44,030 nt of DNA from Actinomycetota bacterium (GTDB taxonomy: Bacteria; Actinomycetota; Thermoleophilia; Solirubrobacterales; Solirubrobacteraceae), in assembly GCA_005888335.1 (NCBI GenBank), contig VAWY01000144.1, forward strand, positions 1-44,030. Reading direction: 5' to 3'. Positions 1,460 to 32,923 of the stretch are shown one piece after another (positions within the stretch are counted from its first letter, which is position 1; each line of letters starts with the position of its first letter). A program made the translations under genes and the position numbers. The notes under the pieces are model-generated. The model saw nothing but the letters and a program-made list of their open reading frames with translations. It did not search any database and was not told where the DNA came from.

Positions 1460-2041
1460 GTGAGCGCGGTGCACGACCTGGTGGAGGAGATCGTGGTGCT
1501 GGCGCCGGGCCGCGAGCTCGCCGTGCTGCGCCCGCGCGACAGCGAGGCCCTGCTCGACGAGCACGCCTTCGAGGCCGAGGAGTTCCTGCCCTACTGGGCC
1601 GAGCTGTGGCCGAGCGGCGTGGCGCTCGCGCGCGCCGTCGCGAACCGCGCGCTGCGCGGCGCGCGGGTGCTCGAGCTGGGCTGCGGGCTCGGCCTGCCGA
1701 GCATCGCGGCGGCGCTGGCGGGCGGGCGCGTGCTCGCGACCGACTGGGCGCCGGCGGCGATCGACCTGCTGCGCGAGAACGCGCGGCGCAACGGCGCGAC
1801 GCTCGAGACGGCGCTCGTGCGCTGGGAGGCGCCCGAGGCGCTCCTCGAGCGGGCGCCGTTCGACCTCGTGCTCGCCGCCGACGTCCTCTACGAGCGCCGC
1901 AACGTCCCGCTGCTCGCCGGCCTCCTCCCGCGCCTGGGCGGCGAGGTGCTGCTCGCCGATCCCGGTCGTCCGCCGCTCGAGGACTTCCTGGCGCGGACCG
2001 GCTCGGTGTGGGCGCGCCCGCCGCTCTACCGCCTGCTTTAG
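1460..2041 (+). CDS. SAM-dependent methyltransferase, METTL16/ETFB-lysine type
   Basis: A protein of 193 residues starting at GTG 1460. The SAM site is V-L-E-L-G-C-G-L-G-L-P-S (motif I, about residues 69-80), with the acidic motif II in A-T-D-W-A-P and a later D-L-V-L-A-A-D-V-L-Y. The upstream P-Y-W-A-E-L-W-P-S-G is typical of the methyltransferase 16 group, which includes protein-lysine and nicotinamide-type enzymes. The target cannot be told from sequence; a protein substrate is a guess. It follows the 29-residue-repeat gene by 8 bases. Its TAG stop is the first codon of a 166-bp palindrome shared with the convergent yqgE-like gene. Confidence 0.85.
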   Translation: MSAVHDLVEEIVVLAPGRELAVLRPRDSEALLDEHAFEAEEFLPYWAELWPSGVALARAVANRALRGARVLELGCGLGLPSIAAALAGGRVLATDWAPAAIDLLRENARRNGATLETALVRWEAPEALLERAPFDLVLAADVLYERRNVPLLAGLLPRLGGEVLLADPGRPPLEDFLARTGSVWARPPLYRLL

Positions 2042-2204
2042 TGCTGCGTCAGGTGACGTTCGCCCCGTCGCCGGCGGAGCGATCGTCGTGGCTGGCGTCG
2101 ACCGTCATCCGAAGGTGTGGCCCAGCCACATCGAGGATCGACGGGTGGCGCCAGGCGCGGCGAGCGCCCGCCGAACGGGGCGAACGTTGCCTGACGCGGC
2201 ACTA
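2039..2204. repeat. Stop-to-stop imperfect palindrome, 166 bp (probable bidirectional terminator)
   Basis: Both arms start with a used stop codon: TAG of the methyltransferase on the plus strand and TAG of the yqgE-like gene on the minus strand. Reading inward, the arms agree at about 27 of the first 30 bases; GCGTCAGG and ACGTTCGCCCCGT are shared. Similarity continues with small indels to the centre, where TGTGGC-CCA-GCCACA (2116-2130) closes the hairpin. I estimate about 80% identity between arms by eye. No U-rich run follows. Likely role is termination in both directions or protection of 3' ends. Confidence 0.8.
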
Positions 2205-2747
2205 GTTCAGCGACGGGTCCGGCGGCATCGTCGCCAGCAGCGCGTACTCGCCGCCCTTGCGGGCCAGGACGCGCGCCCACAGGCGCTCGGGATCGTCGGC
2301 GAACGCGTCCGCGGCCTCGGCGTCGACGACGATCCAGTCGTCGCGCTCGAGCTCTGACTCGAGCTGGCCGGAGCCCCAGCCGGCGTAGCCGAGGTAGGCG
2401 CGCGCGCCGCGCTCGCCGAGCGGCAGGTCGGCGAGGTCGGCGCCCTGCAGGACGAGCCCGACGCTGCCCAGCACCATCAGCGCCTCGTCGGGCGGCGCGT
2501 CGAGGTCGGCCAGCAGCACGATGCTCGCAGGCTGCACCGGCCCGCCCGACCACAGCCGCGCGCCGGGGCCGAGGACGTCGGCGAGCTCGGGGACTGCATC
2601 GCCGACCGCGAGCGGCGTCCGGCGGTTGACGATCAGGCCGAGCGCGCCCTCCTCGCTGTGCTCGCAGACGAGCACGACGGTGCGCCGGAAGTTGGGGTCC
2701 AGGAGCGTCGGTCCGGCCACGAGCAGCCGGCCGCGGAGGGAGTCCAT
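2202..2747 (-). CDS. yqgE: YqgE/AlgH family protein (UPF0301)
   Basis: A protein of 181 residues, close to the usual family length. The start M-x-S-L-R-G-R-L-L-V-A-G-P-x-L-L-D-P-N-F-R-R-T-V is the family signature, followed by G-L-I-V-N-R and, near the middle, W-S-G-G-P-V. A-Y-L-G-Y-A-G-W-G-x-G-Q-L-E is the second conserved block. The family is widespread and small, with one single-domain fold; its biochemical role is not settled, although AlgH was first named as a regulator in Pseudomonas. It lies at the downstream end of a minus-strand run after the helical protein at 2799-3131 and ends inside the 166-bp palindrome. Confidence 0.93.
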   Translation of the reverse strand: MDSLRGRLLVAGPTLLDPNFRRTVVLVCEHSEEGALGLIVNRRTPLAVGDAVPELADVLGPGARLWSGGPVQPASIVLLADLDAPPDEALMVLGSVGLVLQGADLADLPLGERGARAYLGYAGWGSGQLESELERDDWIVVDAEAADAFADDPERLWARVLARKGGEYALLATMPPDPSLN

Positions 2748-2798
2748 GGTGCAAGCGTCTACCCGGACGCGGCCGGATGCGCAACCGGGTTCGCGGCC

Positions 2799-3131
2799 TC
2801 AGTGCCGCTGCGCGAGCGGATCGAGCTCCTGCTCGGGGTCGGCCTCGGCGGCGCCCACGGAGAGCGCCGCGCGGGCGGGCAGGCGCTCGCGCGCCGCGTC
2901 CAGGCGCGCGCGCACCGGCCCGGCAGCCGCGCCGAGCACCCGGCGCTCGCGCGCGGCGAGCGCCGGCCAGCGGGCGCGCAGCGCGCTCAGGCCGGCGTCG
3001 GCCGCCTCGAGGCGGTCGCGCGCAGCGCCGGATGCGCCCTCGTCGAGGGCGGCCTCGGCGGCCGACACATCCAGCGCGACCGCGGCCAGCGCCTTGAGCA
3101 GCGAGTCCACGGGGCGGCCATGGTGCCGCAC
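2799..3131 (-). CDS. Small helical protein of unknown function
   Basis: A protein of up to 110 residues from GTG 3131. A second GTG at 3110 (V-D-S-L-L-K) would give 103 residues and may be the better start, since the first six residues look unlike the rest. The remainder is Ala/Leu/Glu/Arg-rich and strongly helical, with heptad-like spacing across about residues 10-100. There is no signal peptide and no Cys. It lies 10 bases after the ChaB-like gene, so the two are probably co-transcribed. I do not recognise a family. The chance that it is a real gene rests on composition and spacing only. Confidence 0.55.
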   Translation of the reverse strand: MRHHGRPVDSLLKALAAVALDVSAAEAALDEGASGAARDRLEAADAGLSALRARWPALAARERRVLGAAAGPVRARLDAARERLPARAALSVGAAEADPEQELDPLAQRH

Positions 3132-3141
3132 CCCCCGGACG

Positions 3142-3528
3142 TCACTGCTTGCGCGCGATCGCCCTCGCGAGCTCCTTCTTGCTCATCTTCGAGCGCCCCT
3201 CGACGCCGAGCCGCTTGGCGCGCTCGTAGAGCTCCTCCTTGGTGTTGCCCTCTGCGTCGACGCCGCCGTAGGTCTCCTTCGGGTGCTCGCGGGCGGCCCG
3301 GCCGCTCTGCTTGGCCTGCGGGTCCGAGGGGCCCTTCTCGTCCTTGAGCTCCCAGTGGTCGCCGCGCTTCTCGGCGATGTGCTTGACAGAGGCGTACGCC
3401 GTCCGGTGGGCGCGCTCCTCGGAGTCGTACTGCTCGTGCGCGCTGTCGAGCGTCTTCTCGTAGGTCCGCTGGACCTTCTTCGGCGACCGCTCGATCGTGT
3501 CCGGCAGGTCCTCCTTCTTCGCGGGCAT
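3142..3528 (-). CDS. ChaB family protein with Rho-N-like tail
   Basis: A protein of 128 residues with a strong GAGGAGG ribosome site five bases upstream of the ATG at 3528. Residues 1-60 match ChaB: D-L-P-D-T-I, then a basic helix, H-E-Q-Y-D-S-E-E-R-A-H-R-T-A-Y-A-S-V-K-H-I and W-E-L-K. Residues about 95-126 (T-K-E-E-L-Y-E-R-A-K-R-L-G-V-E-G-R-S, K-K-E-L-A-R-A-I) resemble the SAP-like Rho N-terminal domain, a small nucleic-acid-binding fold. E. coli ChaB was named for linkage to the ChaA cation antiporter, but its role is unclear. The pairing of the two domains suggests nucleic-acid contact. A cation antiporter of the ChaA type occurs far away at 41145-42200, so no operon link is seen. Confidence 0.85.
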   Translation of the reverse strand: MPAKKEDLPDTIERSPKKVQRTYEKTLDSAHEQYDSEERAHRTAYASVKHIAEKRGDHWELKDEKGPSDPQAKQSGRAAREHPKETYGGVDAEGNTKEELYERAKRLGVEGRSKMSKKELARAIARKQ

Positions 3529-3566
3529 GGCTGCCTCCTCGAAGTCGCTTCTGCCCGCGGACTGCC

Positions 3567-3583
3567 CCGGGCGCGGCGCCCGG
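3567..3583 (-). terminator. GC-rich hairpin after the acylase gene
   Basis: CCGGGCGC and GCGCCCGG are separated by one base, 13 bases downstream of the acylase stop codon on the minus strand. No U-run follows, so the hairpin may only weakly separate the acylase from the ChaB-like gene. Confidence 0.4.
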
Positions 3584-3595
3584 AAACACGGGGTG

Positions 3596-6319: not shown

Positions 6320-6369
6320 GAGGATGGCGGACCTTAATCGAGCGCGTCGCGCGCGGTCGCAGTCCGGGC

Positions 6370-6837
6370 CTACGGCTCGGGCTCGGGCTCCGGCTCCCCG
6401 CGCTCGACCTCGGCCTTGAGCTCGTCGAGCGTGGTGCGGATCACGTGGTCGCGCACCTTGTCGGCGAACCGCCCGCGAAGCAGCAGCCCGAGCCGCCGCC
6501 CGGGGTCGACGACGAGGTGGAACCACACCCGCGTCCGGCCGTCCCCGAGCTCCTCGAACCGGTACTCCCCGTGCAGGTCCTTGATGTCGCCCTCGACGTA
6601 CGTCCAGCTCATCCTGTGCGGCGGCTCATGGTGGTAGCGCAGCCGGTACTTGATGTCGCGCACGCGTGCGTCCGACACCGTCTCGCCGACGACCGGCCGC
6701 CCCTGCGCATCCCGCTCGATCACCCGCGCCGCACGAACCTGCGACTGCCACTTCGGGTACCGATCGAGCTCGACGACCAGCCCGAAGCACTCCTCACACG
6801 ACGCCCTGACCTCGATCGAGTTCTCGCCCTCGAGCAT
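6370..6837 (-). CDS. SRPBCC (polyketide cyclase/START-like) protein
   Basis: A protein of 155 residues. The start M-L-E-G-E-N-S-I-E-V and the later L-D-R-Y-P-K-W-Q are typical of the SRPBCC helix-grip fold, which binds lipophilic ligands in a deep pocket. The strand pattern continues through Y-R-L-R-Y, W-T-Y-V-E-G-D, Y-R-F-E-E-L-G-D-G-R-T-R-V and ends in the long helix V-R-D-H-V-I-R-T-T-L-D-E-L-K. The last residues are a (EP)n tail that may be disordered. The start lies 41 bases inside the upstream MFS gene, so translation is probably coupled. No catalytic residues can be named; ligand unknown. Confidence 0.85.
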   Translation of the reverse strand: MLEGENSIEVRASCEECFGLVVELDRYPKWQSQVRAARVIERDAQGRPVVGETVSDARVRDIKYRLRYHHEPPHRMSWTYVEGDIKDLHGEYRFEELGDGRTRVWFHLVVDPGRRLGLLLRGRFADKVRDHVIRTTLDELKAEVERGEPEPEPEP

Positions 6838-7924: not shown

Positions 7925-8108
7925 CAGGATCGCCAGCGCGACGATCGCGAAGTTGTCGCCGAGCTCGTTCAGGCCGTAGGACGCGGCCAGCCGACGGAAG
8001 GTCGGGATGCGGAGTGTGTCGACCGCGCTTGTCGTGCGGGCAGCGTAAAGACGAGCCGAGCAGAACCGCGCTCAAGATCAACGGAAATCGGGTCGATAGC
8101 GAGCGGGT

Positions 8109-9732: not shown

Positions 9733-9753
9733 TCGCGCGTATTACGCGCTTCC

Positions 9754-10451: not shown

Positions 10452-11798
10452 ATGGCCGGTCCGCCCGAGACCCGCTACGCCCGCGCCGACGAGCTGCACA
10501 TCGCGTACCAGGTCGTCGGCGAGGGAGCGATGGACGTCCTCTACATCACCGAGGTCCGCTCGCCGATCGACCTCGTCTGGGACGACCCGCTCGCTGCGCA
10601 CGGCCTGAGGCGCCTGGCCTCGCTCGGCCGCCTGATCACCCTCGACCCGCGCGGCTTCGGCAGCTCGGATGCCGTCGACCTGCACCAGATGCCGGCCGTC
10701 GCGACATGGATGGACGACCTCGTCACGGTGATGGACGCCGCGGACAGCCGGCGCGCCGCCGTCGTGGCCTCGGGCTCGGAGATGGGCCTGACCGCGATGC
10801 TCTTCGCCGCGACGCATCCCGAGCGCGTCTCGGCGCTGGTGCTCGTCAACCCGTACGCGCGCTTCGTGCGCTCGCCCGAGCACCCGTGGGCCCTGCCGGC
10901 CGACAAGTTCGACCTCTACCTCGAGAACTTCGAGCGGCTCGTCGGCCGCGGGCCGATCGTCGACTACCTGGCACCCTCGCGAGCCCACGATCCGTCGTTC
11001 CGCCGCTGGTTCACGCGCGGCGAGCGCCTCGGCGCCCCGCCGGGAACCGCTACGGCGACGTTCCGTCGTTACGCGCTCAGCGACGTCACGGGCGTGCTGC
11101 CCTCGATCCGCGTCCCCACGCTCGTCCTGCGCCGGCGCGGCGATCGCCACGTCCGCGAAGGCCACGCGCGGCTGATCGCCGAGCGGATCCCGGGCGCGCG
11201 GCTCGTCGAGCTCGAGGGCGACGACAACGTCTGGTACTCGGGCGACGTCGACGCGCTGCTCGACGAGATCGTCGGCTTCCTGACCGGCGCGCGCGCCGCC
11301 GGACGCGCCGACCGTGTGCTGGCCACGGTGCTCTTCACCGACATCGTCGACTCGACCAGCCGCGCAGCCGAGCTCGGCGACGCGCCGTGGCGCGCGCTCC
11401 TCGACGCCCACGACGAGATCGTCCGGGGCCACGTCGCCGGCTTCGGCGGGCGGCTGGTCAAGTCGCTGGGCGACGGCGCGCTGGCCACCTTCGACGGCCC
11501 GGCGCGCGCCATCCGCTGCGCGGTGGGCGTGCGCGACACGCTGAGCGCGCGCGGACTCGGCGTCCGGGCCGGCCTGCACACCGGCGAGGTCGAGCGCCGC
11601 GGCGACGACATCGGCGGGCTCGCCGTCCACATCGCCGCGCGCATCGCCGCGCTCGCCGCGCCCGAGGAGGTCCTCGTCTCGGGGTCGGTCCCGCCGCTCG
11701 TGGTCGGCGCCGGCCTGCGCTTCCGCGACGCCGGCACGCACACGCTCAAGGGCGTCCCCGAGCGGTGGCCGGTCTTCGCCGTCGAAGAGACGGGTTAG
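10452..11798 (+). CDS. Alpha/beta hydrolase fused to class III adenylyl/guanylyl cyclase
   Basis: A protein of 448 residues. Residues 1-275 are an alpha/beta-hydrolase: L-D-P-R-G-F-G-S-S-D, then A-S-G-S109-E-M-G as nucleophile elbow. The His expected in the last loop (usual form G-x-D-H-x-x-W-x-G-D) is Asn259 in G-D-D-N-V-W-Y-S-G-D, so hydrolase catalysis is doubtful and a sensor role is possible. Residues 290-445 are a cyclase domain with metal ligands D297 (L-F-T-D-I-V-D-S-T) and D341 (K337-S-L-G-D-G), and the late block G-G-L-A-V-H-I-A-A-R. The product would be cAMP or cGMP. Its TAG overlaps the TAA of the convergent zur-like gene by four bases. Confidence 0.92.
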   Translation: MAGPPETRYARADELHIAYQVVGEGAMDVLYITEVRSPIDLVWDDPLAAHGLRRLASLGRLITLDPRGFGSSDAVDLHQMPAVATWMDDLVTVMDAADSRRAAVVASGSEMGLTAMLFAATHPERVSALVLVNPYARFVRSPEHPWALPADKFDLYLENFERLVGRGPIVDYLAPSRAHDPSFRRWFTRGERLGAPPGTATATFRRYALSDVTGVLPSIRVPTLVLRRRGDRHVREGHARLIAERIPGARLVELEGDDNVWYSGDVDALLDEIVGFLTGARAAGRADRVLATVLFTDIVDSTSRAAELGDAPWRALLDAHDEIVRGHVAGFGGRLVKSLGDGALATFDGPARAIRCAVGVRDTLSARGLGVRAGLHTGEVERRGDDIGGLAVHIAARIAALAAPEEVLVSGSVPPLVVGAGLRFRDAGTHTLKGVPERWPVFAVEETG

Positions 11799-23027: not shown

Positions 23028-24764
23028 ATGAGCTTCCTGCAACCCGCACCGCCTCCGTTCGACCTCGACGAGTGGAAGGCCAAGCCCTACCTCGAGCGCC
23101 TGAAGGCCAACTGCCAGGACTGGGCGGTCAACGGCTTCGGCACGCCGGGCGTCGTCTTCCTGCTCTACGCCGTCAAGCTGGTCGTGTTCGTCGTCGCCGC
23201 ATTCTTCGTGATCTCGGTCACGACCCCCGGCGTCGGCGGCCTGGGCGACGTCGGCGACTGGTGGACCCGGCCGATCGTCTACCAGAAGCTCGCCGTCTGG
23301 ACGCTGCTGTGGGAGATCCTCGGCCTCGGCTCGGGGTCGATGCAGCTCGCCGCGCGCTACGGGCCGGTGATCGGCGGGGCGCTGTACTGGCTGCGACCGG
23401 GCACGGTCCGGCTGCCGCCGTGGCCCGACAAGGTGCCGCTGACGCGCGGCTCCCGGCGCACGCGCGTCGACGCCGTGCTGTACGCCGGCGTGCTCGTCTC
23501 GGGCATCCACCTGCTTGTCTCGAGCGGAACCGGCGGCCGGCTCGACCCCGCCGCGATCGCCCTGCTGCTCGCCTTCTGGGCGCTGCTCGGCCTGCGCGAC
23601 AAGGTCTCCTTCCTCGCCGCCCGTCCCGAGGTCTACGGCTTCCTGCTGATCGTCTCGCTGTTCCCGGCCCACAACCTCATCGTGGGCTGGCAGTTCGTCA
23701 TCTTCTTCATCTGGTGGGGCGCGGCGGCCTCCAAGCTCAACCGGCACTTCCCGTACGTCATCGCGGTGATGGTCAGCAACACGCCGTGGAACCGCTCGCG
23801 CAAGGCCAAGGCGCGGCTCTACGAGCGCTACCCCGACGACCTGCGCCCCGGTCGCTCCGCCGCGCTCGGCGCCCATCTCGGGACCGTGATCGAGTTCGGC
23901 CTGCCGCTCGTGCTCATCCTGTCCCACGGCGGCACGATCGGAACGCTCGCGGTGATCGGGATGATCATCTTCCACACCCACATCACCTCGACGTTCGCCC
24001 TCGGCGTGCCCATGGAGTGGAACCTGTTCATGATCTTCAGCGTCCTCTTCCTGTTCGGGCACTACGGGGACGTCCCGTTGTCGACGCTCGACAACCCGCT
24101 GCTGATCGCGGTGCTCGTCGTCGGCGGGGTGCTCATCCCGATCATCGGCAACCTGTTCCCGGAGAAGGTCTCGTTCCTGCCCGGGATGCGCTACTACGCG
24201 GGCAACTGGGCGACGAGCCTGTGGCTGTTCGGCAAGGACACCCAGGCCGAGAAGAAGCTCGACGAGCGCGTCGACAAGGTGGCCACGTCGACCGTCGAGC
24301 AGCTCGCCAAGCTCTACGGGCGCGAGACCGCCGAGTACTTCCTCGAGAAGAGCCTCGCGTTCCGGGCGATGCACAGCCACGGACGCGCGCTCAATGCGCT
24401 GATGGCGCGCGCCGTGGACGACGTCGAGGCCTACGACATCCGCGACGGCGAGCTCGTCTCGGGCATCGTCGCCGGCTGGAACTTCGGCGACGGCCACTTC
24501 CACCACCACCAGCTGCTCGAGGCGGTCCAGGAGCAGTGCGCCTTCGAGCCCGGCGAGCTGCGCGTGGTGGCGCTCGAGGGCCAGCCCGCGCACGTCCAGC
24601 GCCAGCACTACCGCATCCTCGACGCCGCGACCGGGGTGCTCGAGGAGGGCTGGGTCGACGTCGCCGAGATGGTCAAGCGCGGGCCGTGGCTGGAGGGGTC
24701 GTTCGACTTCCCGGTCGACGTCACCACGCGCCGCAGCGCCGACCGCGGCCTGACGCCGGCATGA
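23028..24764 (+). CDS. Multi-pass membrane protein, DUF3556-like
   Basis: A protein of 578 residues. ATG 23028 follows AAGGAGAG with good spacing. Ten or so membrane helices lie between about residues 38 and 385, for example V-F-L-L-Y-A-V-K-L-V-V-F-V-V and F-V-I-F-F-I-W-W-G-A-A. The short loop S-N-T-P-W-N-R-S and the motif F-H-T-H-I-T-S-T-F contain polar residues inside the membrane part. The C-terminal 170 residues are cytosolic and helical. I believe this is the actinobacterial DUF3556 family, whose function is not known to me. Its stop overlaps the next start (ATGA), so it works with the FAD oxidoreductase; a membrane-linked lipid or terpenoid pathway is a guess. Confidence 0.75.
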   Translation: MSFLQPAPPPFDLDEWKAKPYLERLKANCQDWAVNGFGTPGVVFLLYAVKLVVFVVAAFFVISVTTPGVGGLGDVGDWWTRPIVYQKLAVWTLLWEILGLGSGSMQLAARYGPVIGGALYWLRPGTVRLPPWPDKVPLTRGSRRTRVDAVLYAGVLVSGIHLLVSSGTGGRLDPAAIALLLAFWALLGLRDKVSFLAARPEVYGFLLIVSLFPAHNLIVGWQFVIFFIWWGAAASKLNRHFPYVIAVMVSNTPWNRSRKAKARLYERYPDDLRPGRSAALGAHLGTVIEFGLPLVLILSHGGTIGTLAVIGMIIFHTHITSTFALGVPMEWNLFMIFSVLFLFGHYGDVPLSTLDNPLLIAVLVVGGVLIPIIGNLFPEKVSFLPGMRYYAGNWATSLWLFGKDTQAEKKLDERVDKVATSTVEQLAKLYGRETAEYFLEKSLAFRAMHSHGRALNALMARAVDDVEAYDIRDGELVSGIVAGWNFGDGHFHHHQLLEAVQEQCAFEPGELRVVALEGQPAHVQRQHYRILDAATGVLEEGWVDVAEMVKRGPWLEGSFDFPVDVTTRRSADRGLTPA

Positions 24765-26182
24765 GCTCCGCCATCGTGGTCGGCGCCGGCCCGAACGGGC
24801 TGGCCTGCGCGGTCGCGCTCGCCCGCGAGGGCGTCGCCGTGACCGTGCTCGAGGCCGAGGACACCATCGGCGGCGGTGCCCGCAGCGCCGAGCTCACCGT
24901 CCCCGGGCTGCTGCACGACTGCTGCTCGGCAGTGCACCCGATGGCGGTCGGCTCGCCGTTCCTGCGGTCGCTCGGGCTCGAGCGGCACGGGCTCGAGTGG
25001 CGCTGGCCGGAGGTCGACTGCGCGCATCCGCTCGATGACGGCAGCGCGGGAGTGATGTTGCGCTCGCTCGACGCCACCGTGGCGGGGCTCGGCGACGACG
25101 GCGCCGCGTGGCGGCGGGTCTTCGGCGCCCCCGCCCAGTCGTTCGACGCGCTCAGCGAGGACCTGTTCCGCCCCGTCCTGCACGTCCCGCGCCACCCGCT
25201 GCGGCTGACGCGCTTCGGCGTGCCGGCCGCGCTGCCCGCGACCGTGCTGGCGCGCGCCTGGCGCACGCCGCAGGCGCGCGCGCTGTTCGGCGGCGTCGCC
25301 GCGCACGCGCTCGCGCCCCTGACCCGCCCGATGAGCTCGTCGGTCGGCACGGCGCTCATCTGCGCCGGCCACCGCTTCGGCTGGGCGGTGGCGCGCGGCG
25401 GCTCGCAAGCGATCACCAACGCGCTCGCCGCGGTCCTGCGCGAGCACGGGGGGACGATCGAGACCGGCGTGCGCGTGCGCTCGCTGTCCGAGCTGCCCGG
25501 CGCGGACGCGGTCGTGCTCGACCTGGCGCCCGCGCGCGCCGCCGACGTCGCGGGCGAGCGCCTGCCCCGGCGCGTCGAGCGCGCCTACCGGCGCTACCGC
25601 CACGGTCCCGCGGCGTTCAAGGTCGACTTCGCGGTGCAGGGCGGCGTGCCCTGGACGAACGAGGCCTGCCGCCGCGCGGGGACCGTCCACGCCGCCGGGC
25701 CCTTCGAGGAGATCGTCGCCGGCGAGCGCGACATCAACCGCGGGCGGATGCCGGAGCGGCCGTTCGTGCTCGTCTCCCAGCAGTACCTCGCCGACCCCGG
25801 GCGCTCGTCGGGCGACGTGCACCCGCTGTGGGCCTACGCGCACGTCCCGAACGGCTACGACGGCGACGCCGCGCAGGCGATCGTCGACCAGATCGAGCGC
25901 TTCGCACCCGGGTTCCGCGAGCGGATCGTCGCGACGAGGGTGCGCTCGACGCGCGAGATCGCCGCGCGCAACGAGAACTACGTCGGCGGCGACATCATCA
26001 CCGGGGCGAACACGCCGCTGCAGATCGTGATCCGGCCCCGGCTGGCGCTGGACCCGTACAGCACCGGCATCCCCGGGGTCTTCATCTGCTCCGCCGCGAC
26101 GCCGCCCGGCGCCGGGGTGCACGGAATGAACGGCTGCAACGCGGCGCAGTCCGTCCTGCGGCGGCTGCTCCGCCGCCGATGA
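24761..26182 (+). CDS. FAD-dependent oxidoreductase, phytoene-desaturase/CrtI-like
   Basis: A protein of 473 residues. The start has the Rossmann FAD site V-V-G-A-G-P-N-G-L-A-C-A-V-A-L-A-R-E-G, followed by V-L-E-A-E-D-T-I-G-G-G-A-R-S. The late blocks N-E-N-Y-V-G-G-D-I and S-A-A-T-P-P-G-A-G-V-H-G-M-N-G are typical of the NAD(P)/FAD oxidoreductases related to carotenoid desaturases and isomerases. It lacks a signal peptide. The ATG overlaps the TGA of the membrane protein gene, so translation is coupled. The true substrate is unknown; no other carotenoid genes are near. The TGA stop opens the 166-bp palindrome at 26180-26345. Confidence 0.9.
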   Translation: MSSAIVVGAGPNGLACAVALAREGVAVTVLEAEDTIGGGARSAELTVPGLLHDCCSAVHPMAVGSPFLRSLGLERHGLEWRWPEVDCAHPLDDGSAGVMLRSLDATVAGLGDDGAAWRRVFGAPAQSFDALSEDLFRPVLHVPRHPLRLTRFGVPAALPATVLARAWRTPQARALFGGVAAHALAPLTRPMSSSVGTALICAGHRFGWAVARGGSQAITNALAAVLREHGGTIETGVRVRSLSELPGADAVVLDLAPARAADVAGERLPRRVERAYRRYRHGPAAFKVDFAVQGGVPWTNEACRRAGTVHAAGPFEEIVAGERDINRGRMPERPFVLVSQQYLADPGRSSGDVHPLWAYAHVPNGYDGDAAQAIVDQIERFAPGFRERIVATRVRSTREIAARNENYVGGDIITGANTPLQIVIRPRLALDPYSTGIPGVFICSAATPPGAGVHGMNGCNAAQSVLRRLLRRR

Positions 26183-26345
26183 CTGATTCCACAACCCTCG
26201 CACCCGGCTGACCGCGCCTCGCGGCGCCGGATCGCCACCCGCCGAGACCGGCCCGTGCCGCTGGCACTGTGCCGGTCCGGCGTGCGGCGCCCGGCATCCG
26301 CGATCCACGGCCATCCGGGCATGACGGCCGCGGAACCAGCCATCA
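26180..26345. repeat. Stop-to-stop imperfect palindrome, 166 bp
   Basis: It runs from the TGA of the FAD oxidoreductase to the TGA of the convergent M3 peptidase. Arms agree, with small gaps, at CTGATTCC/CTGGTTCC, CCCGG, TCGCGG, GCCGG, CGCC, GCCG and GACCGGC, closing on GTGCC-GCT-GGCAC (26255-26267). I estimate 65-75% identity between arms by eye, less than in the element at 2039-2204. No protein gene is present in this gap. The likely role is termination in both directions. Confidence 0.7.
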
Positions 26346-28151
26346 GTCGATCCGCCCCGCCTCGCGCGCCGCGGCCTCGGCGTCGTCGAGCTGCTCGGCG
26401 ACGAGGTCCAGGCCCGCCGACCAGAAGCCCGGGTCGGAGAGGTCGACCCCCACGATCCGCGCGAGGTCCTCAGGGAGCATCGAGCCGCCCGCGGCCAGCA
26501 TCTCGAGGTAGCTGGGCACGAACGACTCGCCCTCGTCGCGGTAGCGGCGGTACACGCTGAGCGCGAGCAGCTGGCCGTAGGCGTAGGCGTACACGTAGCC
26601 GGGCGTGTTGATGAAGTGGGGGATGTAGCTCCACCAGGTGCGGTAGCCCTCGGTGACCTCGACGGCGTCGCCGAAGAGGTCTTCCTGCGTGCTCGCCCAC
26701 AGCTCGCCGAAGCGGTCGACGCTGAGTTCGCCCACGGAGCGCCGCGTGGTGTGGACGGCGTCCTCGAAGCGGTTCATCGCCGTCTGGCGGAACACCGTGG
26801 CGATCGCGCCCTCGATCGCCTCGGCCAGCAGCGCCAGGCGCGACTCGGGCGTCTCGGCCTGCTCGAGCAGCCGCCCGAAGACGATCGCCTCGCCGAAGAC
26901 GCTGGCGGTCTCGGCGACGGTCAGCGGCGTGTGCTGCTGGAGGATGCCCTGGTGCGCGGCGAACGCGAAGTGCAGGCCGTGGCCGAGCTCGTGGGCGAGC
27001 GTCAGGACGTCGCGGCGCTTGGCGGTGAAGTTGAGCATCACGTAGGGGTGCACGCTGGGCACCGCGGTCGTCGCGAACGCGCCGCCGCGCTTGCCCGGGC
27101 GCACCGGCGCGTCGATCCAGCGCTCGTCGAAGAAGCGGCGCGCCTCGCGCTCGAGCACGGGGCTGAAGCTGGCGAACGCGTCGAGGACGAGGTCGCGCGC
27201 CTCGCCCCAGCGGAAGACCGGCTCCTCGCTGGTCACCGCCGCGGCGCGGTCGAAGTCGGCCAGCTTGGGCACGCCGAGCATCTGGGCCTTGAGGCGGTAC
27301 CAGCGCTGCGGGATCGCCGCGTAGCGCTCCTGCACGGCGCTGACGAGCGCCTCGACGGACTCGTCGGAGACCTCGTTGGCGAGGTTGCGGCTCGAGATCC
27401 ACGTCGGGTAGCCGCGCAGGCGGTCGTCGGTGGCCTTGTCGGCGAGCAGCGTGTTGAGGATGAACGCGCGCGTGCGCAGCCCCGGCGCAAGCGCCTCGGT
27501 CACGTCGCGCGCGGTCTGCTCGCGCACCGAGCGATCAGCCGACGACAGGCGGGCCAGCGCACTGTCGAGCGGCTTGCCGGCCTCGCCGACCTCGATGGCC
27601 GAGACCTGCTCGGCGAACAGCCGCGCCCACGCCGCCCGCGCGCTGACCTGCTTCTCGGTGAGGATCTTCTCCTCGGGCTCGGAGAGCAGGTAGGGGCGGT
27701 AGCGGCGCTCCATGCGTAGGTGGTGGCGGGCGAAGTCGAGCCCCTCGGCGGCCAACAGCTCCTCGGCGCGCTCGTCGTCGAGGGCCGCCCACTCGAGGCC
27801 GAAGAACAGGAGCTTGGTCTCGATCGCCGTCCCTCGCTCCTGGACGCGCTGCAGCAGCGCGCCGCGGGCCGGATCGCTCGTGTCGGTCGAGAAGCGCAGG
27901 CCGGCGTACGTCCCGGCCTTGCCGGCGAGCTCCTCGATCGCCTCGAGCTCGCGCATCGCCTCGACGAGCTGCGGCCCGTCGAGGTCGGCGACGCGCCCGG
28001 CGTAGCGGTCGGCGAACGCGATAGCACGGCGCTCGGCTTCGTCGAGCCAGGCCAGCGCGCCCTCGTCGCCGCGCCCGTCCACGAGCGGGTCGAGATCCCA
28101 GGCGGTCTGGAGGAGGTCGGGGTCTTCGAGGGCGGTCTCGGTGCTGGCCAT
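26343..28151 (-). CDS. M3 family oligoendopeptidase (PepF-like)
   Basis: A protein of 602 residues, the normal length for oligoendopeptidase F. The zinc site is A-H387-E388-L-G-H391-G-L-H-F-A-F, with a third ligand Glu expected about 25-30 residues later in A-E-T-A-S-V-F-G-E. The N-terminal half is helical as in the family, with W-D-L-D-P-L-V near the start. It cuts small peptides in the cytosol; there is no signal. The start lies just past the hairpin at 28153-28178. The gene upstream on the same strand codes for a secreted helical protein and is probably not functionally linked. Confidence 0.94.
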   Translation of the reverse strand: MASTETALEDPDLLQTAWDLDPLVDGRGDEGALAWLDEAERRAIAFADRYAGRVADLDGPQLVEAMRELEAIEELAGKAGTYAGLRFSTDTSDPARGALLQRVQERGTAIETKLLFFGLEWAALDDERAEELLAAEGLDFARHHLRMERRYRPYLLSEPEEKILTEKQVSARAAWARLFAEQVSAIEVGEAGKPLDSALARLSSADRSVREQTARDVTEALAPGLRTRAFILNTLLADKATDDRLRGYPTWISSRNLANEVSDESVEALVSAVQERYAAIPQRWYRLKAQMLGVPKLADFDRAAAVTSEEPVFRWGEARDLVLDAFASFSPVLEREARRFFDERWIDAPVRPGKRGGAFATTAVPSVHPYVMLNFTAKRRDVLTLAHELGHGLHFAFAAHQGILQQHTPLTVAETASVFGEAIVFGRLLEQAETPESRLALLAEAIEGAIATVFRQTAMNRFEDAVHTTRRSVGELSVDRFGELWASTQEDLFGDAVEVTEGYRTWWSYIPHFINTPGYVYAYAYGQLLALSVYRRYRDEGESFVPSYLEMLAAGGSMLPEDLARIVGVDLSDPGFWSAGLDLVAEQLDDAEAAAREAGRID

Positions 28152-28152
28152 G

Positions 28153-28178
28153 GGGCGGGAGACTAGACGCCCCCGCCC
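28153..28178 (-). terminator. GC-rich hairpin between the secreted protein and M3 peptidase genes
   Basis: GGGCGGG (28153-28159) pairs with CCCGCCC (28172-28178) over a 12-base loop. It touches the peptidase start region on the minus strand, so it could terminate the upstream mRNA or hide the peptidase ribosome site. No U-run is present. Confidence 0.35.
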
Positions 28179-28190
28179 GCGCGGCCTGGG

Positions 28191-28850
28191 CTACCGGAAG
28201 CGGCTGGGGAACTGCCTGACGATGCCCCCGCTCAGCGCGTCGGCCATCGCGAGGATGTGATGGTGGACGTGGTCGTAGTCGGTGACGCTCGCCGCGTAGT
28301 GGCCGGTGAGCTCGTCGGACGCCTCCTTGAGCGTCTCGTCGAGGTGCATCTTCATCATCGAGCGCAGCGCGGCGCGCGGCCAGTTGCGCGGGTTGGCCTT
28401 GCTGAGGAAGTCAGCGATCTGGTTGGCGTTCGCGTACCAGGCGGCGTTGGCCTTGGCCAGCGCGGCCTTGTCGCCGGCCTTGGCGGCCTGGAGGACGTCG
28501 ACCGCGCCGAGGATGTGCTGCCTGAGCAGCGCGGTCAGCCGGTTGCCGGCCTTGGCGCCGTAGAACGGCTTGATGGCGTCGCCGATGTCGGTCTGGTTGG
28601 CCAGCAGCCGCGCTTCGGTGGCCTTGAGGTCGGGGTCGCCGGCGGCGAAGCTGACGATCGCCAGGCGCGTCCACGTGATGTGGTCCTCCCACAGCCTGCG
28701 CATGTCGTCGTGGAAGGCCTTCCGCTGGACCGTGGCCTTGGCGGCGGCGTGATGGCTCGCCGGCGTCGCGCCCGCGACGCCCGCGACGGTGAGTGCGCTC
28801 GCGGCCGCGGCGACGGCGATCGGGCGTGAGAGAAAGCGAAGTGAATGCAT
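28191..28850 (-). CDS. Secreted helical protein of unknown function
   Basis: A protein of 219 residues with a signal peptide (M-H-S-L-R-F-L-S-R-P-I, Ala/Val core, A-T-P-A-S-H). The mature part is four or more amphipathic helices with scattered His, Trp and Asp: W-E-D-H-I-T-W-T-R-L-A-I-V-S, W-Y-A-N-A-N-Q-I-A-D-F-L and Y-D-H-V-H-H-H-I-L-A-M-A-D-A-L. This resembles a four-helix-bundle exoprotein, perhaps metal-binding through the H-x-x-H-H-H cluster, but I know no function. A start-less zf-HC2 remnant lies 31 bases upstream on the same strand. Confidence 0.75.
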   Translation of the reverse strand: MHSLRFLSRPIAVAAAASALTVAGVAGATPASHHAAAKATVQRKAFHDDMRRLWEDHITWTRLAIVSFAAGDPDLKATEARLLANQTDIGDAIKPFYGAKAGNRLTALLRQHILGAVDVLQAAKAGDKAALAKANAAWYANANQIADFLSKANPRNWPRAALRSMMKMHLDETLKEASDELTGHYAASVTDYDHVHHHILAMADALSGGIVRQFPSRFR

Positions 28851-28881
28851 GGCCCCGTTGGCGACGCCCGGGGGGCGGTTC

Positions 28882-29055
28882 TTACGCCGGTGGTGTCCGG
28901 CCGCTGACCAGCGCGAGGAGGGAGTCGTGGTCCTCGCGGCAGGCGGCGCAGCCCTCGAGATGGGCGCGCATCACCGGCACGGCGGCCTCGGCGTCCGCGC
29001 CGGCGACCTCGAGCTCGACGTAGCGGTCGAGCGAGCGCCGGCCGAGTGGCCATTC
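28882..29055 (-). pseudogene. zf-HC2 anti-sigma-type remnant without start codon
   Basis: The frame from the TAA at 29058 to the TAA at 28882 codes for W-P-L-G-R-R-S-L-D-R-Y-V-E-L-E-V-A-G-A and then M-R-A-H-L-E-G-C-A-A-C-R-E-D-H-D-S-L-L-A-L, a clear zf-HC2 C-terminal half with the C-x-x-C pair. No ATG, GTG or TTG occurs before the end of the first helix, and the usual N-terminal Cys is missing. An ATG at 29051 exists in another frame, so an indel is possible. The upstream edge is the perfect palindrome at 29053-29074. It would once have bound a sigma factor. Confidence 0.65.
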
Positions 29056-29074
29056 TTACCGCGCGCGGTAAGAA
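29053..29074. promoter_or_regulatory. Perfect 22-bp palindrome upstream of the ferredoxin-reductase-like gene
   Basis: The arm TTCTTACCGCG is followed directly by its exact complement. GGCCA and TGGCC extend the symmetry on both sides after a one-base slip. It ends 29 bases before ATG 29104 and covers the 5' edge of the zf-HC2 remnant. It is probably an operator for the flavoprotein gene; no regulator gene is adjacent. A recombination scar is the alternative. Confidence 0.7.
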
Positions 29075-29103
29075 GTGGCCGCGTGTGATCAGCTACCGGT
29101 GCT

Positions 29104-30330
29104 ATGAGCGAGACACATCTGATCGTCGGCGGCGGGCTGGCCGCGGGCAAGGCGGCCGAGGCGCTGCGCGAGGAGGGCTTCGACGGGCGGATCGTCGTCG
29201 TCACCGAGGAGCGCGAGCGCCCGTACGAGCGCCCGCCGCTGAGCAAGGAGTACCTGCGCCGTGAGGCGCCGCGGGAGAAGATCTACGTCCACGAGGAGGG
29301 CTGGTACGCCGAGCACGACGTCGAGCTGCGCACCGGCGAGCGGGTGGCGTCGATCGACGCCGGCGCGTCGGTGGCGAAGCTCGACTCCGGCGAGGAGCTG
29401 CGCTTCGCCGCGCTGCTGCTGGCCACCGGCGCCGAGCCGCGCCGCCTGCGCGCGCCGGGCGCCGAGCTGGAGGGCGTGCACGTGCTGCGCTCGGTCGACG
29501 ACTCCGACGCGATCAGCGAGCGCCTCGAGCGCGGCGGCGGCCGGCTCGCCGTGGTCGGCGGCGGGTGGATCGGCTGCGAGGTCGCCGCGTCGGCGCGCCA
29601 GCGCGGGCTCGACGTGGTCATGGTCGAGCCGCTCGAGCTTCCGCTGGTGCGCGTGCTCGGGCCGGAGGTGGCCCGCGTCCTGCGCGACGTGCATGCCGAC
29701 CACGGCGTGGAGGTCCTGACCGGGACCGGCGTGGAGGCGTTCGAGGGCGACGGCGCGCTGCGCGCCGTGCGCACGAGCGACGGCCGCTCGATCGAGTGCG
29801 ACTTCGCGGTCGTGGGGATCGGCGTCGCGCCGCGGGTCCAGCTCGCGCAGGACGCCGGGCTCGCGGTCGGCGACGGCGTGCTCGTCGACGCGGCGCTGCG
29901 CACGAGCGCGCCGGGGATCTTCGCGGCGGGTGACGTCGCCGGGCAGGAGCACCCGCGCTACGCCGAGCGCGTGCGCGTCGAGCACTGGGCGAACGCTTTG
30001 AACCAGGGCGCGGCGGCCGGGCGCTCGATGGCCGGGCGCGAGGTCGTGTACGACCGCCTGCCGTACTTCTTCTCCGACCAGTACGACGTGGGCCTGGAGT
30101 ACAGCGGGCTTGCCGGCGCCGACGACGAGCTCGTCGTCCGCGGTGAGCTCGCGCCCGCCGGCTTCATCGCGTTCTGGCTGCGCGACGGGCGCGTGACGGC
30201 CGGGCTGAATCTGAACGTGTGGGATGTGACGGGGCCGATCCAGGAGCTGATCCGGTCGGGCGTGGTGGTCGATCGCGACGCGCTGGCGGATGTCGATACG
30301 CCGTTGGAGTCGTTGGTGGGGGCTGCGTAG
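29104..30330 (+). CDS. FAD-dependent ferredoxin/rubredoxin reductase (BphA4/ThcD type)
   Basis: A protein of 408 residues. FAD site I-V-G-G-G-L-A-A-G-K-A-A-E, then P-Y-E-R-P-P-L-S-K-E-Y-L, the classic oxygenase-coupled reductase block; NAD(P) site V-V-G-G-G-W-I-G-C-E-V-A; late G-I-F-A-A-G-D-V-A and the C-terminal reductase_C region (P-Y-F-F-S-D-Q-Y-D-V-G-L-E-Y-S-G). It passes electrons from NAD(P)H to a small ferredoxin, often for a cytochrome P450 or dioxygenase; neither partner is encoded nearby. No ribosome site is obvious before ATG 29104. Its TAG opens the large palindrome at 30328-30741. Confidence 0.93.
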   Translation: MSETHLIVGGGLAAGKAAEALREEGFDGRIVVVTEERERPYERPPLSKEYLRREAPREKIYVHEEGWYAEHDVELRTGERVASIDAGASVAKLDSGEELRFAALLLATGAEPRRLRAPGAELEGVHVLRSVDDSDAISERLERGGGRLAVVGGGWIGCEVAASARQRGLDVVMVEPLELPLVRVLGPEVARVLRDVHADHGVEVLTGTGVEAFEGDGALRAVRTSDGRSIECDFAVVGIGVAPRVQLAQDAGLAVGDGVLVDAALRTSAPGIFAAGDVAGQEHPRYAERVRVEHWANALNQGAAAGRSMAGREVVYDRLPYFFSDQYDVGLEYSGLAGADDELVVRGELAPAGFIAFWLRDGRVTAGLNLNVWDVTGPIQELIRSGVVVDRDALADVDTPLESLVGAA

Positions 30331-30741
30331 GTCGTTTGGGCGCTCCGCTCGTTTCGTGGGCCGCGGGTCGGGGCGTGGTCCGATGGCACCGAGGGGAACG
30401 CGGCCGGGTCTGCGCCCCGGCCGCCCGGCTCCGTGCGCGGACGCGGCTCCCCGGGGGAGCGAGCGGCTACGCGCCAAGGCTGTCGCGTATGTCAAGAAGC
30501 GCATGACTGTCATGCGCTTCTTGACGCATGCACGCCAGCGGCGCTGGTCCTGGCGCGTTTCCGCTCGCCTCGCGTGGGTGGGGAACGAAACCGCTCACTA
30601 TGCGCCCTTTCGTTCCCCACTCGGGGAGCCGCGACCGCGGACGATGCCGCGCCGCCCGGGCGCGGACCACGATCGGCATCCCCTCGGTGCCACGAGCGCG
30701 GCCGCGACCGGAGCGCGAAAGCGCGCGGGACGCCGCGCCTA
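30328..30741. repeat. Large stop-to-stop inverted repeat with nested hairpins
   Basis: The 408-base gap between two convergent genes has no gene. Centre: GTCAAGAAGCGCATGAC (30491-30507), one T, and its perfect complement (30509-30525). Outward, GCGAGCGG-x-x-ACGCGCCA, then CGCGGCTCCCCG, then GGCACCGAGGGGA recur in inverted order on both sides up to the two TAG stop codons. The right arm is about 50 bases longer because it carries its own hairpin, GTGGGGAACGAAA (30578-30590) and TTTCGTTCCCCAC (30608-30620). It may be a bidirectional terminator or an old inverted element. Confidence 0.8.
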
Positions 30742-31098
30742 ATGCGCCAGCGCCACCCCCAACCACACGATCGCCAGCGAGACCACGAAGATCGCCCCAT
30801 CGAGCACGTGCCACGCCGGCCGCCGGATATGCACGCCGACGAGCACCCCGGCGACAGCCACCAGCGCGAGCTTCACATGCAGCGTCCCATCCGACCAGCG
30901 GTGGTAGTACGACGCCATCTGCGTCCCCGTGACGACCAGGACGGCGAGCGCGACCAGCGTCCCGTACCCAAAGCGCCGCGCCATCGCTCGCATCTGCTCG
31001 GTGCCCCGCGCGACGGGGACGACCGCGGCGACGAGGACGAGCTGGCCGCCGACGAAGAAGGCCATGGCCAAGAGGTGCAGCCAGCGGACGACGGTCAT
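30739..31098 (-). CDS. Small four-helix membrane protein, CopD-like
   Basis: A protein of 119 residues. Four membrane segments: R-W-L-H-L-L-A-M-A-F-F-V-G-G-Q-L-V-L, L-V-A-L-A-V-L-V-V-T-G-T, V-K-L-A-L-V-A-V-A-G-V-L-V-G and F-V-V-S-L-A-I-V-W-L-G-V. His in the first helix and the G-G-Q, with a Y-Y-H-R-W loop, recall CopD/HemJ-type membrane proteins, which may bind heme or copper, but the match is loose. The start overlaps the TGA of the MFS gene by ATGA, so it is coupled to that exporter. Confidence 0.8.
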   Translation of the reverse strand: MTVVRWLHLLAMAFFVGGQLVLVAAVVPVARGTEQMRAMARRFGYGTLVALAVLVVTGTQMASYYHRWSDGTLHVKLALVAVAGVLVGVHIRRPAWHVLDGAIFVVSLAIVWLGVALAH

Positions 31099-32741
31099 CC
31101 GAACAGGATCGAGAGTAGGCCGGTGAGCGACCGCGGATCGACGCCGTAGCGCCGCTTGAAGCGCTGGGCGTCGGCGTCGTCGGCCAGCGCCAGCACGAGT
31201 TCCTCGCGCGAGGAGCCGATGCTGCAGGCAGAGCGATCGAGCTGCCGCAGCGCGACGTCCTGCAGCGCGCCCGTCAGCCCCCCGGTGCCGGGGAGCCGGC
31301 GCGGCGCGCACGGATCGGCGATCGTGACGGGCTTGGGCGCCCGCGAGCGGTGGAGCAGCGCGTAGGCGGGGACGGCGAGCAGCGAGACCGCCGCGAGCGC
31401 GATGGCCAGGCGCCCGCGGGCGACCGGAGCGCCGAAGAGCACGAGCACGGCCGCGGCGAGCACGCCGAGCGCGCCGGCGATCAGGAACGCCTCGTCGAAG
31501 GCGTCGCCGACCGCGGCGACGAGCGTCTCGTCTGCGCGGTCGGCGAGCGTGTCGAACGTCGCGCGCTCGGCGCCGCTGAACTGGTCGCGCTGCTCGTCGA
31601 TCGCGTCGCGCAGCTCGCCGCGCGGGTCCTTGCTGCGCACGCCGGTGAGCAGCGCCGGTGCGAGCGACAGCTTGTCCTGGGGCGGCAGGCGCGCGTCGAG
31701 GACGAGCGCCACGCCGCGCAGGCGCGCGGTGTGCGTGGAGGCGTCGAGCTGATGGCTGACGACCGGCGCGAGCGCAGCGAGCACGGCCGCGATGCCGACG
31801 TGGCGCAGGCAGAGCAGCCGCGCGGCGTCGCCCGCGCTGCGCTCGAGCAGCAGCTCGCCGCTCAGGGCGGGCAGCGCCAGGCCCATGCCGGCGCCGGCGA
31901 GGACCTGCGGCGGGATCGTCCAGGCGACCGACGCGCCGGGCAGGTAGGCGAGGCACAGCGTCCCGGCGCCGATGAGCAGCGCGCCGGTGACGGCGCGCAC
32001 CGCGGCCGGCCCGCGCACCCGCGAGGCCGCCAGCGCGGACACCGGCACCACGCTGACCGCCGCGGCCGCGACCAGCGGGTCGACGCTCCACCCGGCGACG
32101 AGCTCGAGGACGAGCAGGAAGAGCACCGCGGTGAGCGCGGCGGCGACGAACCCGAGCGCGGCAGCCGGGCCGGCGGGCAGCGGGCTGCGCGCGGGCGCCG
32201 GCACCGCGTGCGAGACCGCGGCTGCGCGGAACGCGACGACGGCCGCGGCGAGCGCGACCGGCGCCTGCGCGATGAAGATCGCCCGCCAGCCGAGCGCCTC
32301 GGTCAGCGCGCCGCCGAGCGCGGGGCCGGCGGCGGTGCCGAAGACCGCCGCCGCCACCCACAGCCGCCGCCCGCGCCCCGCCCCGTCGAGCAGCGTGAAG
32401 GCGGCCAGTAGCCCGGCCGCGCCGCCCGCCGCCTGCACCGCGCGGCCGGCGAGCAGCACGCCCAGGGACCCAGCCGCCGCGCACACGAGCGAGGCACCGG
32501 CCATGAGCGCCAGCCCGGCCGCGCCGACCCGCGCCGCCCCGTGGCGGCGCTCGAGCTCCCCGGCGACCGGCAGCGCCGCGGCGAGCACGAGCACGTAGAC
32601 GCCGAGCACCGCGGCGACGCCCTCGACCGTCGTGTCGAGCTCGCGCAGCAGCGCCGGGAGCGCGAGCGCGACGACCGACGCGTCGGCCAGCGCGAGGCCG
32701 GCCGAGACGGCGAGGACGAGGGCGGAGCGCCGCGACAGCAC
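31095..32741 (-). CDS. MFS transporter (DHA2-like) with C-terminal Cys-containing extension
   Basis: A protein of 548 residues with 12-14 membrane helices (about 8-465). The first half has the normal MFS loops (L-A-D-A-S-V-V-A-L-A-L-P-A-L-L-R-E-L, G-E-L-E-R-R-H-G). Between helices near 330-400 lies a long acidic/basic loop. Residues about 470-548 form a soluble tail: D-P-C-A-P-R-R-L-P-G-T-G-G, A-L-Q-D-V-A-L-R-Q-L-D-R-S-A-C-S, G-S-S-R-E-E-L-V-L-A-L-A-D and G-V-D-P-R. Such a tail is not usual in drug exporters; the two Cys could pair if it lies outside. Substrate unknown. Coupled to the CopD-like gene. Confidence 0.88.
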   Translation of the reverse strand: MLSRRSALVLAVSAGLALADASVVALALPALLRELDTTVEGVAAVLGVYVLVLAAALPVAGELERRHGAARVGAAGLALMAGASLVCAAAGSLGVLLAGRAVQAAGGAAGLLAAFTLLDGAGRGRRLWVAAAVFGTAAGPALGGALTEALGWRAIFIAQAPVALAAAVVAFRAAAVSHAVPAPARSPLPAGPAAALGFVAAALTAVLFLLVLELVAGWSVDPLVAAAAVSVVPVSALAASRVRGPAAVRAVTGALLIGAGTLCLAYLPGASVAWTIPPQVLAGAGMGLALPALSGELLLERSAGDAARLLCLRHVGIAAVLAALAPVVSHQLDASTHTARLRGVALVLDARLPPQDKLSLAPALLTGVRSKDPRGELRDAIDEQRDQFSGAERATFDTLADRADETLVAAVGDAFDEAFLIAGALGVLAAAVLVLFGAPVARGRLAIALAAVSLLAVPAYALLHRSRAPKPVTIADPCAPRRLPGTGGLTGALQDVALRQLDRSACSIGSSREELVLALADDADAQRFKRRYGVDPRSLTGLLSILFG

Positions 32742-32758
32742 CCCGCCAGTCTCGCGGT

Positions 32759-32923
32759 TAGCCGGGATCCGCCGATAGCTCGTGGATGCGAGGCGTCCGG
32801 AGGCCGAGTCAGACGGCTTCGGCCGCGCATCCGCAGGGTGACCCCTTCGGTTCGCGGCCGAAGCCGGACGGCGAAGGCGTCCGGGCGTCTCGCGCCGCGA
32901 GAATCGGGGCGGGTCCCGGCTCA
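32759..32923. repeat. Imperfect palindrome after the S15 hydrolase gene, 165 bp
   Basis: The right arm begins at the TGA of the hydrolase (minus strand). Arms share AGCCGGGA-x-CCGCC, CTCG-x-GG, GCGAG-x-CG-x-CCGGA and a perfect 13-bp core GGCTTCGGCCGCG/CGCGGCCGAAGCC, closing on GGGT-G-ACCC (32836-32844). The left arm also starts with TAG (32759), but no gene ends there; the MFS start is 18 bases away. Estimated identity between arms is about 75-80%. It separates the hydrolase gene from the MFS gene. Confidence 0.75.

What the first reader, a model, noticed from the sequence alone, without database searches (positions are those of the whole stretch)
2039..32923. A class of gene-end palindromes about 165 bp long that begin at stop codons
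Three elements (2039-2204, 26180-26345, 32759-32923) measure 166, 166 and 165 bp between the outer stop-like trinucleotides. Each is one imperfect inverted repeat along nearly its whole length, and each starts at a real stop codon on at least one side; two sit exactly between convergent genes. A larger (30328-30741) and a tiny one (43432-43453) follow the same plan. The arms of different elements do not look alike, so a shared length and layout without shared sequence is unexpected for a mobile repeat. Roles could be two-way transcription termination, 3'-end protection, or double-stranded RNA processing. With three cases, the equal length may be chance.
Basis: partly seen in the sequence, partly recalled or inferred. 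Interest (0 to 1): 0.85.

Follow-up and report, generated by a model that had tools for sequence, protein, structure and literature searches.

The report
Hairpin mobile elements at stop codons
The long palindromes at these gene ends are small non-coding jumping elements from three different families that tend to insert at the letters forming stop codons, so the neighbouring genes stay intact while a long hairpin appears between them.

Summary
The palindromes are real (fold z-scores -16.1, -5.1, -12.7, -12.9), but the three ~165-bp ones are mobile repeats. Each has full-length, sharp-edged copies at unrelated loci in other genomes of the order.

E1 ends match an IS630-family element and E2 ends an IS982-family element. 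E3 copies carry identical 3-bp TNA direct repeats in 9 of 12 cases; no transposase was found for it.

Target choice gives the stop-to-stop layout: E1/E2 use TA, mostly CTAG, and E3 uses TNA. These letters make stop codons, and duplicating them leaves the gene its stop. One empty site supports this. A neighbour's stop codon is the element end in 9 of 15 E1, 17 of 24 E2 and 9 of 12 E3 copies.

Less expected: stems covary between copies over their whole length. Departures from palindromy are mainly G.U on one strand, usually antisense to the neighbours (27 of 36). This suggests selection on a single-strand hairpin.

E4 is a real palindrome without known copies. The 22-bp item is not supported.

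The parts
2039..2204 (+). E1: palindromic MITE with IS630-type ends; element 2041-2202, flanking TA at 2039-2040 and 2203-2204. The better-folding strand is +.
   Evidence: fold; copies; IS630 ends:
1460..2041 (+). Methyltransferase-like gene; its TAG stop (2039-2041) is the left end of E1
2202..2747 (-). AlgH-like (DUF179) gene; its TAG stop (CTA 2202-2204) is the right end of E1; 12 fetched homologues end at the matching residue
26178..26344 (-). E2: palindromic MITE with IS982-type ends, an old copy whose flanking TA are both mutated (CC left, AG right). The better-folding strand is -.
   Evidence: fold; copies; IS982 ends:
24761..26182 (+). Amine-oxidase-like gene; now ends at a TGA inside the left end of E2 (26180-26182)
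26343..28151 (-). Peptidase M3 gene; its TGA stop (TCA 26343-26345) overlaps the right end of E2
32758..32923 (+). E3: palindromic MITE of a TNA-duplicating family; element 32761-32920, flanks TTA (32758-32760) and TCA (32921-32923), not identical. The better-folding strand is +, antisense to both neighbours.
   Evidence: fold; copies:
32921..34753 (-). Peptidase S15-like gene; its TGA stop (TCA 32921-32923) is the right target repeat of E3
30328..30741 (.). E4: 414-nt palindrome with nested hairpins between two TAG stops of convergent genes; possible nested or composite element, no full copy found
11795..11798 (.). Convergent genes sharing TTAG as overlapping stops: an unoccupied site of the kind that E1 is inferred to have hit

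Best explanation
E1, E2 and E3 are non-coding, full-length-palindromic MITEs of three different transposon families, moved in trans by an IS630-type, an IS982-type and an unidentified TNA-duplicating transposase. Their layout follows from target choice. E1 and E2 insert at TA, mostly inside CTAG; E3 inserts at TNA, mostly inside CTNAG. In this G+C-rich lineage CTAG is rare and often part of a stop codon. The target letters are duplicated and the elements begin with G, so the upstream gene keeps or regains TAG, TGA or TAA. Where two convergent genes share CTAG or TTAG as overlapping stops, each keeps a stop and the element lies exactly between them. Shown: copies, sharp ends, target repeats, one empty site, terminal identity with IS elements, stop coincidence. 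Inferred: movement in trans, that the hairpin is kept for a function as RNA or single-stranded DNA of one strand, and that hosts retain mostly the orientation with the weaker fold in the mRNA.
For: Full-length copies elsewhere for each element; three E2 copies in one 6.36-Mb contig, the other two 94% identical to the query copy. E2 ends enclose an IS982-family transposase in a 992-bp element. E1 ends equal the termini of a 1,504-bp element with an IS630-family transposase. Ten same-length (1,004 bp) IS982-type copies in G171 all sit in C-TA-G, 7 of 10 with a neighbour's stop as the IS end. E3: identical TNA in direct order in 9 of 12 (p 0.0001 among 11 TNA pairs). Empty site: an E2 copy lies exactly at the yrbEA stop in G081 (gap 167 bp); in 26 of the 29 other loci examined yrbEB follows at an estimated -13 to 31 bp. 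Stop coincidence: 9 of 15 E1, 17 of 24 E2, 9 of 12 E3. NCBI annotation of two Streptomyces plasmid copies agrees. CTAG in 1.6 Mb of G084: 309 sites against 3,993 expected from composition, 93 of them in stop codons.
Against: No genome of the window's species is held, so neither copies nor empty sites were seen in it, and synteny at the window's own sites was not kept in the relatives held. The window's E2 has lost both TA, and its E3 flanks differ (TTA, TCA). The E2 copy at the empty site has TA on one side and TG on the other. Only 6 stretches of E1 type had TA on both sides, and 12 of 24 E2. No parent IS was found for E3. No IS with E1 ends was found in the order itself; the one seen is in Streptomyces. 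E4 has no known copies.
Confidence: 0.9

Rival explanations
1. They are host-evolved two-way terminators between convergent genes, each arising in place, with arms kept complementary by selection for termination.
For: Three of the four convergent gaps over 100 bp in the window are palindromic; stems are kept by compensatory change.
Against: Dispersed copies with sharp ends, target repeats, an empty site, ends shared with IS elements. No excess in convergent gaps of relatives. No T-run follows the stems by eye. Copies occur between co-directional genes of one operon.
Confidence: 0.05
2. The elements are mobile, but the stop-codon preference is mostly survivorship: they insert at any CTAG or TNA and copies in coding sequence are lost.
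For: 0 of 24 E2 and 1 of 12 E3 copies lie inside a called gene. Of the non-coding CTAG sites in G084, 37.5% are stops anyway, and of non-coding CTNAG sites 36.6%. For E1 the excess over 37.5% is weak (9 of 15, p 0.06).
Against: E2 has 17 of 24 at stops (p 0.001) and the IS982 copies in G171 have 7 of 10 (p 0.04). Copies are related and the background is from another genome, so these values are optimistic.
Confidence: 0.45
3. The one-strand G.U pattern and the covariation come from mutation, not function: template switching in a strand-specific hairpin during replication corrects A.C but leaves G.T.
For: Double changes such as G-C to C-G are frequent, which a single templated copy would produce at once. 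The antisense bias (27 of 36) could follow replication direction.
Against: Within the main E2 subfamily the better strand is the same in 17 of 17 aligned copies whatever the neighbours' direction, so polarity is inherited, not set by the site.
Confidence: 0.3

Closest known systems
IS630-family (Tc1/mariner-type) elements and their MITEs
   Same: E1 shares about 30 terminal bases with an IS630-family element; TA target (passages of PMC2170065). A CTAG preference of IS630 is stated in the title of Tenzen and Ohtsubo 1991, seen only in that paper's reference list.
   Different: E1 has no transposase and is a hairpin over its whole length, not only at its ends.
IS982-family elements and the IS982-derived MITE of Cardinium (PMC9769881)
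   Same: E2 shares its ends with an IS982-family element; an IS982-derived MITE of about 240 bp has been described (passages).
   Different: In the passages seen, that MITE is not described as lying at stop codons; E2 is 166 bp and palindromic throughout.
TnRErm46 of Rhodococcus equi (PMC6794481)
   Same: Targets CTAG, and the repeat supplies TAG stop codons so that some target genes are not interrupted (passages).
   Different: A large transposon carrying genes, not a short palindromic element.
GTAG-tagged REPs (PMC3733652)
   Same: Palindromic; ends often provide the TAG stop to flanking ORFs; G-T pairing was taken as a hint of RNA function (passages).
   Different: 20-40 bp, stems of 5-13 bp, tied to RAYT-type genes; here stems of about 60-73 pairs with DDE-type parents for E1 and E2.
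YPAL/RU-2 of Yersinia (PMC2229807)
   Same: About 168 bp, palindromic, intergenic, mobile (passages).
   Different: Ends lack TA, target duplications vary from 3 to 26 bp; one family in enterobacteria.
MITEPsy1 of Pseudomonas syringae (PMC3189936)
   Same: Short MITE inserting at CTAG or YTAA (passages).
   Different: 100 bp with 18-nt terminal repeats only; attributed there to an IS5-like parent.

Membership tests
MITE (general) | Dispersed, non-coding, under about 300 bp, with terminal inverted repeats | tested here: met
   E1-E3:
MITE (general) | Target-site duplication | tested here: met
   E3: identical TNA in 9 of 12. E2: TA on both sides in 12 of 24. E1: TA on both sides in 6 rows. Part of the copies have mutated flanks. 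TA is its own reverse complement, so for E1/E2 it is weaker proof than for E3.
IS630-type MITE (E1) | Ends shared with an IS630-family element | tested here: met
IS630-type MITE (E1) | Moved in trans by that transposase | not testable with these tools
   needs a transposition assay
IS982-type MITE (E2) | Ends shared with an IS982-family element | tested here: met
   among 16 IS loci long enough to test, 9 showed such ends
IS982-type MITE (E2) | Moved in trans by that transposase | not testable with these tools
   needs a transposition assay
IS5-type (TNA) MITE (E3) | Ends shared with an IS of that group | tested here: inconclusive
   no parent IS found; the link of TNA repeats with an IS5 subgroup is recalled
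Intrinsic terminator | Stem followed by a T-run | tested here: not met
   by eye
E4 as a MITE | Full-length copies elsewhere | tested here: not met
   3 of 232 genomes with partial hits only, two candidates scored per genome

The most novel reading that the evidence does not exclude
Three different transposon families have converged on one design: a non-coding element of about 156-167 bp that is a single long hairpin, enters at stop codons without harming the gene, and is selected to fold as RNA (or single-stranded DNA) of one fixed strand, with G.U tolerated on that strand only. The hairpin strand would serve the element's own life cycle, and hosts retain mainly the orientation that puts the weaker fold in their mRNA.
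Probability: 0.4. Interest if true: 0.75.

Novelty: new variant of a known kind. Interest (0 to 1): 0.55.

Why it matters
It shows how mobile DNA can spread in compact, G+C-rich genomes with little damage: target letters, stop-codon letters and the duplicated repeat coincide. It offers a route by which long hairpins appear exactly between convergent genes, and warns against reading gene-end palindromes as evolved terminators before looking for copies elsewhere. The one-strand G.U pattern predicts which strand of a palindromic MITE matters, which RNA mapping can test.

Tried and rejected
Own-genome survey: not possible. Rfam at gathering thresholds: no match. Elements alike among themselves: no. 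General convergent-gap palindrome in relatives: no. Empty sites at the window's own positions: gene order not kept in the loci held. with loose E1 ends gave 53 rows, mostly chance pairs; dropped for the stop count, which uses the 15 E1 rows left after removing the partial hit in L224. Partial hits for E2 and E3 (for example L224, L227, L210, L211) were left out likewise. One search listed nested pairs of the same copies; superseded. E3 parent: the 981-bp pair in L415 held no transposase recognisable by eye (no domain search was run), and no plasmid match was found. E2 in plasmids: four short hits. Literature; these gave the prior art cited, and I saw no paper in those listings that describes these families. 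The library lacks most subscription journals. Integron attC sites were considered from recall only.
Full report
OBSERVATION. The window is 74% G+C and its nearest protein relatives include Solirubrobacterales. No genome of its own is held. The three elements and the larger one are palindromes far beyond shuffles: z -16.1, -5.1, -12.7 and -12.9. Three of the four convergent gaps longer than 100 bp are palindromic and one is not; one gap is 16 bp and four convergent pairs overlap. The 22-bp item is not above background.

NOT A GENERAL FEATURE OF GENE ENDS. In 80 loci of relatives, stems of 35 or more unbranched pairs were found in 4 of 80 folded convergent, 22 of 283 co-directional and 3 of 122 divergent gaps. 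In 1.6 Mb of the related genome G084, stems of 50 or more pairs were found in 5 of 119 convergent, 12 of 486 co-directional and 6 of 202 divergent gaps.

MOBILE REPEATS. Each element was searched in 232 genomes of the order. E1: 75 of 232 genomes had a match at E up to 0.001, mostly short; full-length or nearly full-length matches (70-78% in the best, down to 69%) were found in G082, G046, G085, G089, G090, G088, G051, G084 and G186. E3: 8 of 232 at E up to 1e-5, full-length in G173 (two), G100 and G077. E2: 28 of 232 at E up to 1e-5, with many full-length copies. Only three candidates per genome were scored, so copy numbers are lower bounds. E4: 3 of 232, partial. Flanks differ between copies. 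In G091 three E2 copies, the query copy and two at 94%, lie hundreds of kb or more apart. Shorter palindromes with the same ends (about 45-125 bp) also occur. An E1-type 167-bp element recurs in plasmids of Streptomyces and Embleya: 39 records with a match, 8 covering at least 80% of the query.

PARENTS. One pair of E2 ends lies 992 bp apart and encloses a 289-aa protein that NCBIfam assigns to the IS982 family above its cut-off. Relatives of it were found in 35 of 232 genomes. Of 30 such loci, 14 were too short to test and 9 of the other 16 showed ends of this type. E1's last 30 bases match Streptomyces plasmid DNA in 20 records; in one of these, the ends bound a 1,504-bp element with an IS630-family transposase. 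For E3 no transposase was found.

TARGET AND STOP CODONS. E2 copies have TA on both sides in 12 of 24 and on at least one side in 24 of 24; E3 copies have TNA on both sides in 11 of 12, identical and in direct order in 9. Ten 1,004-bp IS982-type copies in G171, of equal score, all sit in C-TA-G, and in 7 of 10 a neighbour's stop is the IS end; only ten candidates were scored there. In G084, CTAG occurs 309 times against 3,993 expected from composition: 93 in stops, 155 intergenic, 61 coding. For TNA as such the stop share is only 3.6%, for CTNAG 12.4%. A neighbour's stop codon is the element end in 9 of 15 E1 copies, 17 of 24 E2 copies (both ends in 4) and 9 of 12 E3 copies. NCBI annotation agrees in the two plasmid copies with annotated genes there; three others had no annotation. 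In G084, 11 convergent pairs overlap by 4 nt with CTAG (6) or TTAG (5). Insertion in such a site gives each gene its own stop with the element exactly between, as at E1.

EMPTY SITE. In G081 an E2 copy separates yrbEA from yrbEB by 167 bp. Among 29 other loci from the same search, yrbEB follows at an estimated -13 to 31 bp in 26; in three it is not adjacent. In the close relatives G079 and G076 (97% identity) and in G077 (88%) YrbEA ends at the same residues. The two sides of the G081 copy read TA and TG, so this repeat is imperfect. For E1 in the window, 12 AlgH homologues fetched out of 120 listed all end in PPDP-x-x-N, where the window's protein ends too.

HAIRPIN. In 17 E1-type copies 31 of 58 pairs, and in 21 E2 copies 26 of 42, show changes on both sides; 91.6% and 92.5% of cells are paired, no shuffle of 500 reaches any of the five measures, and slid controls fall to 29-50%. 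The structures were derived from the same alignments, which favours them over slid versions. Departures from palindromy are mainly G.U on one strand: 7 against 1, 12 against 1 and 6 against 0 in the window's E1, E2, E3; single tests p 0.07, 0.003, 0.03. The energy difference between strands (0.193, 0.244, 0.166 kcal/mol per nt) exceeds the 99% point of simulated neutral decay (0.162; largest of 300, 0.194), but one single-copy hairpin of G084 reaches 0.22 and several others are lopsided too. The better strand is the same in 17 of 17 copies of the main E2 subfamily, opposite in four copies of G065 and G066 that differ in sequence, and the same in 16 of 17 E1-type copies. Of 52 copies, 36 have flanking genes of one readable direction: the better strand is antisense in 27 and sense in 9 (p 0.004); with genes on both sides 19 and 5. 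Relatedness makes these values optimistic.

READING. Shown: dispersed families, sharp ends, target repeats, ends shared with IS630 and IS982 elements, one empty site, stop coincidence. Inferred: movement in trans, selection on one strand, the orientation filter. How far the stop preference is active choice and how far survivorship is open. Sparing of stops by CTAG targeting is known for TnRErm46, and supply of TAG by GTAG REPs (passages of PMC6794481 and PMC3733652). What is added is a set of long, whole-length palindromic MITEs from several transposon families with a shared size class and one-stranded pairing.

Noticed in passing
L372:630-1750 (G138): An IS982-type element sits in the exact centre of a perfect terminator-like palindrome (ACCCCCTCCCGT / ACGGGAGGGGGT).
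   Followed up: no
G084, 335066-335240 and 4812020-4812193: A further palindromic repeat family: two copies 97% identical, 166-175 bp, TAG at one end, with 10-12 G.U pairs on one strand against 1 on the other.
   Followed up: partly
G084, e.g. 401611 and 289399 in the stretch from 2400001, 861 in the stretch from 1200001: Another dispersed palindromic family with several 82-91% copies.
   Followed up: no
L221 (G065) and L226 (G186): Both carry an E2 copy between a permease gene and a malK-like gene: one old insertion or two hits at the same stop.
   Followed up: no
L209:1504-1662 (G077): An E3 copy inside a called gene, the only one among 24 E2 and 12 E3 copies.
   Followed up: no
L223:1645-1664 (G081): The start codon of yrbEB lies a few bases after the element, so its ribosome-binding site would have to come from the element.
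   Followed up: no
window 30485-30532: Inside E4, a near-perfect 17-bp hairpin with a 3-nt loop, possibly an element nested in an element.
   Followed up: no
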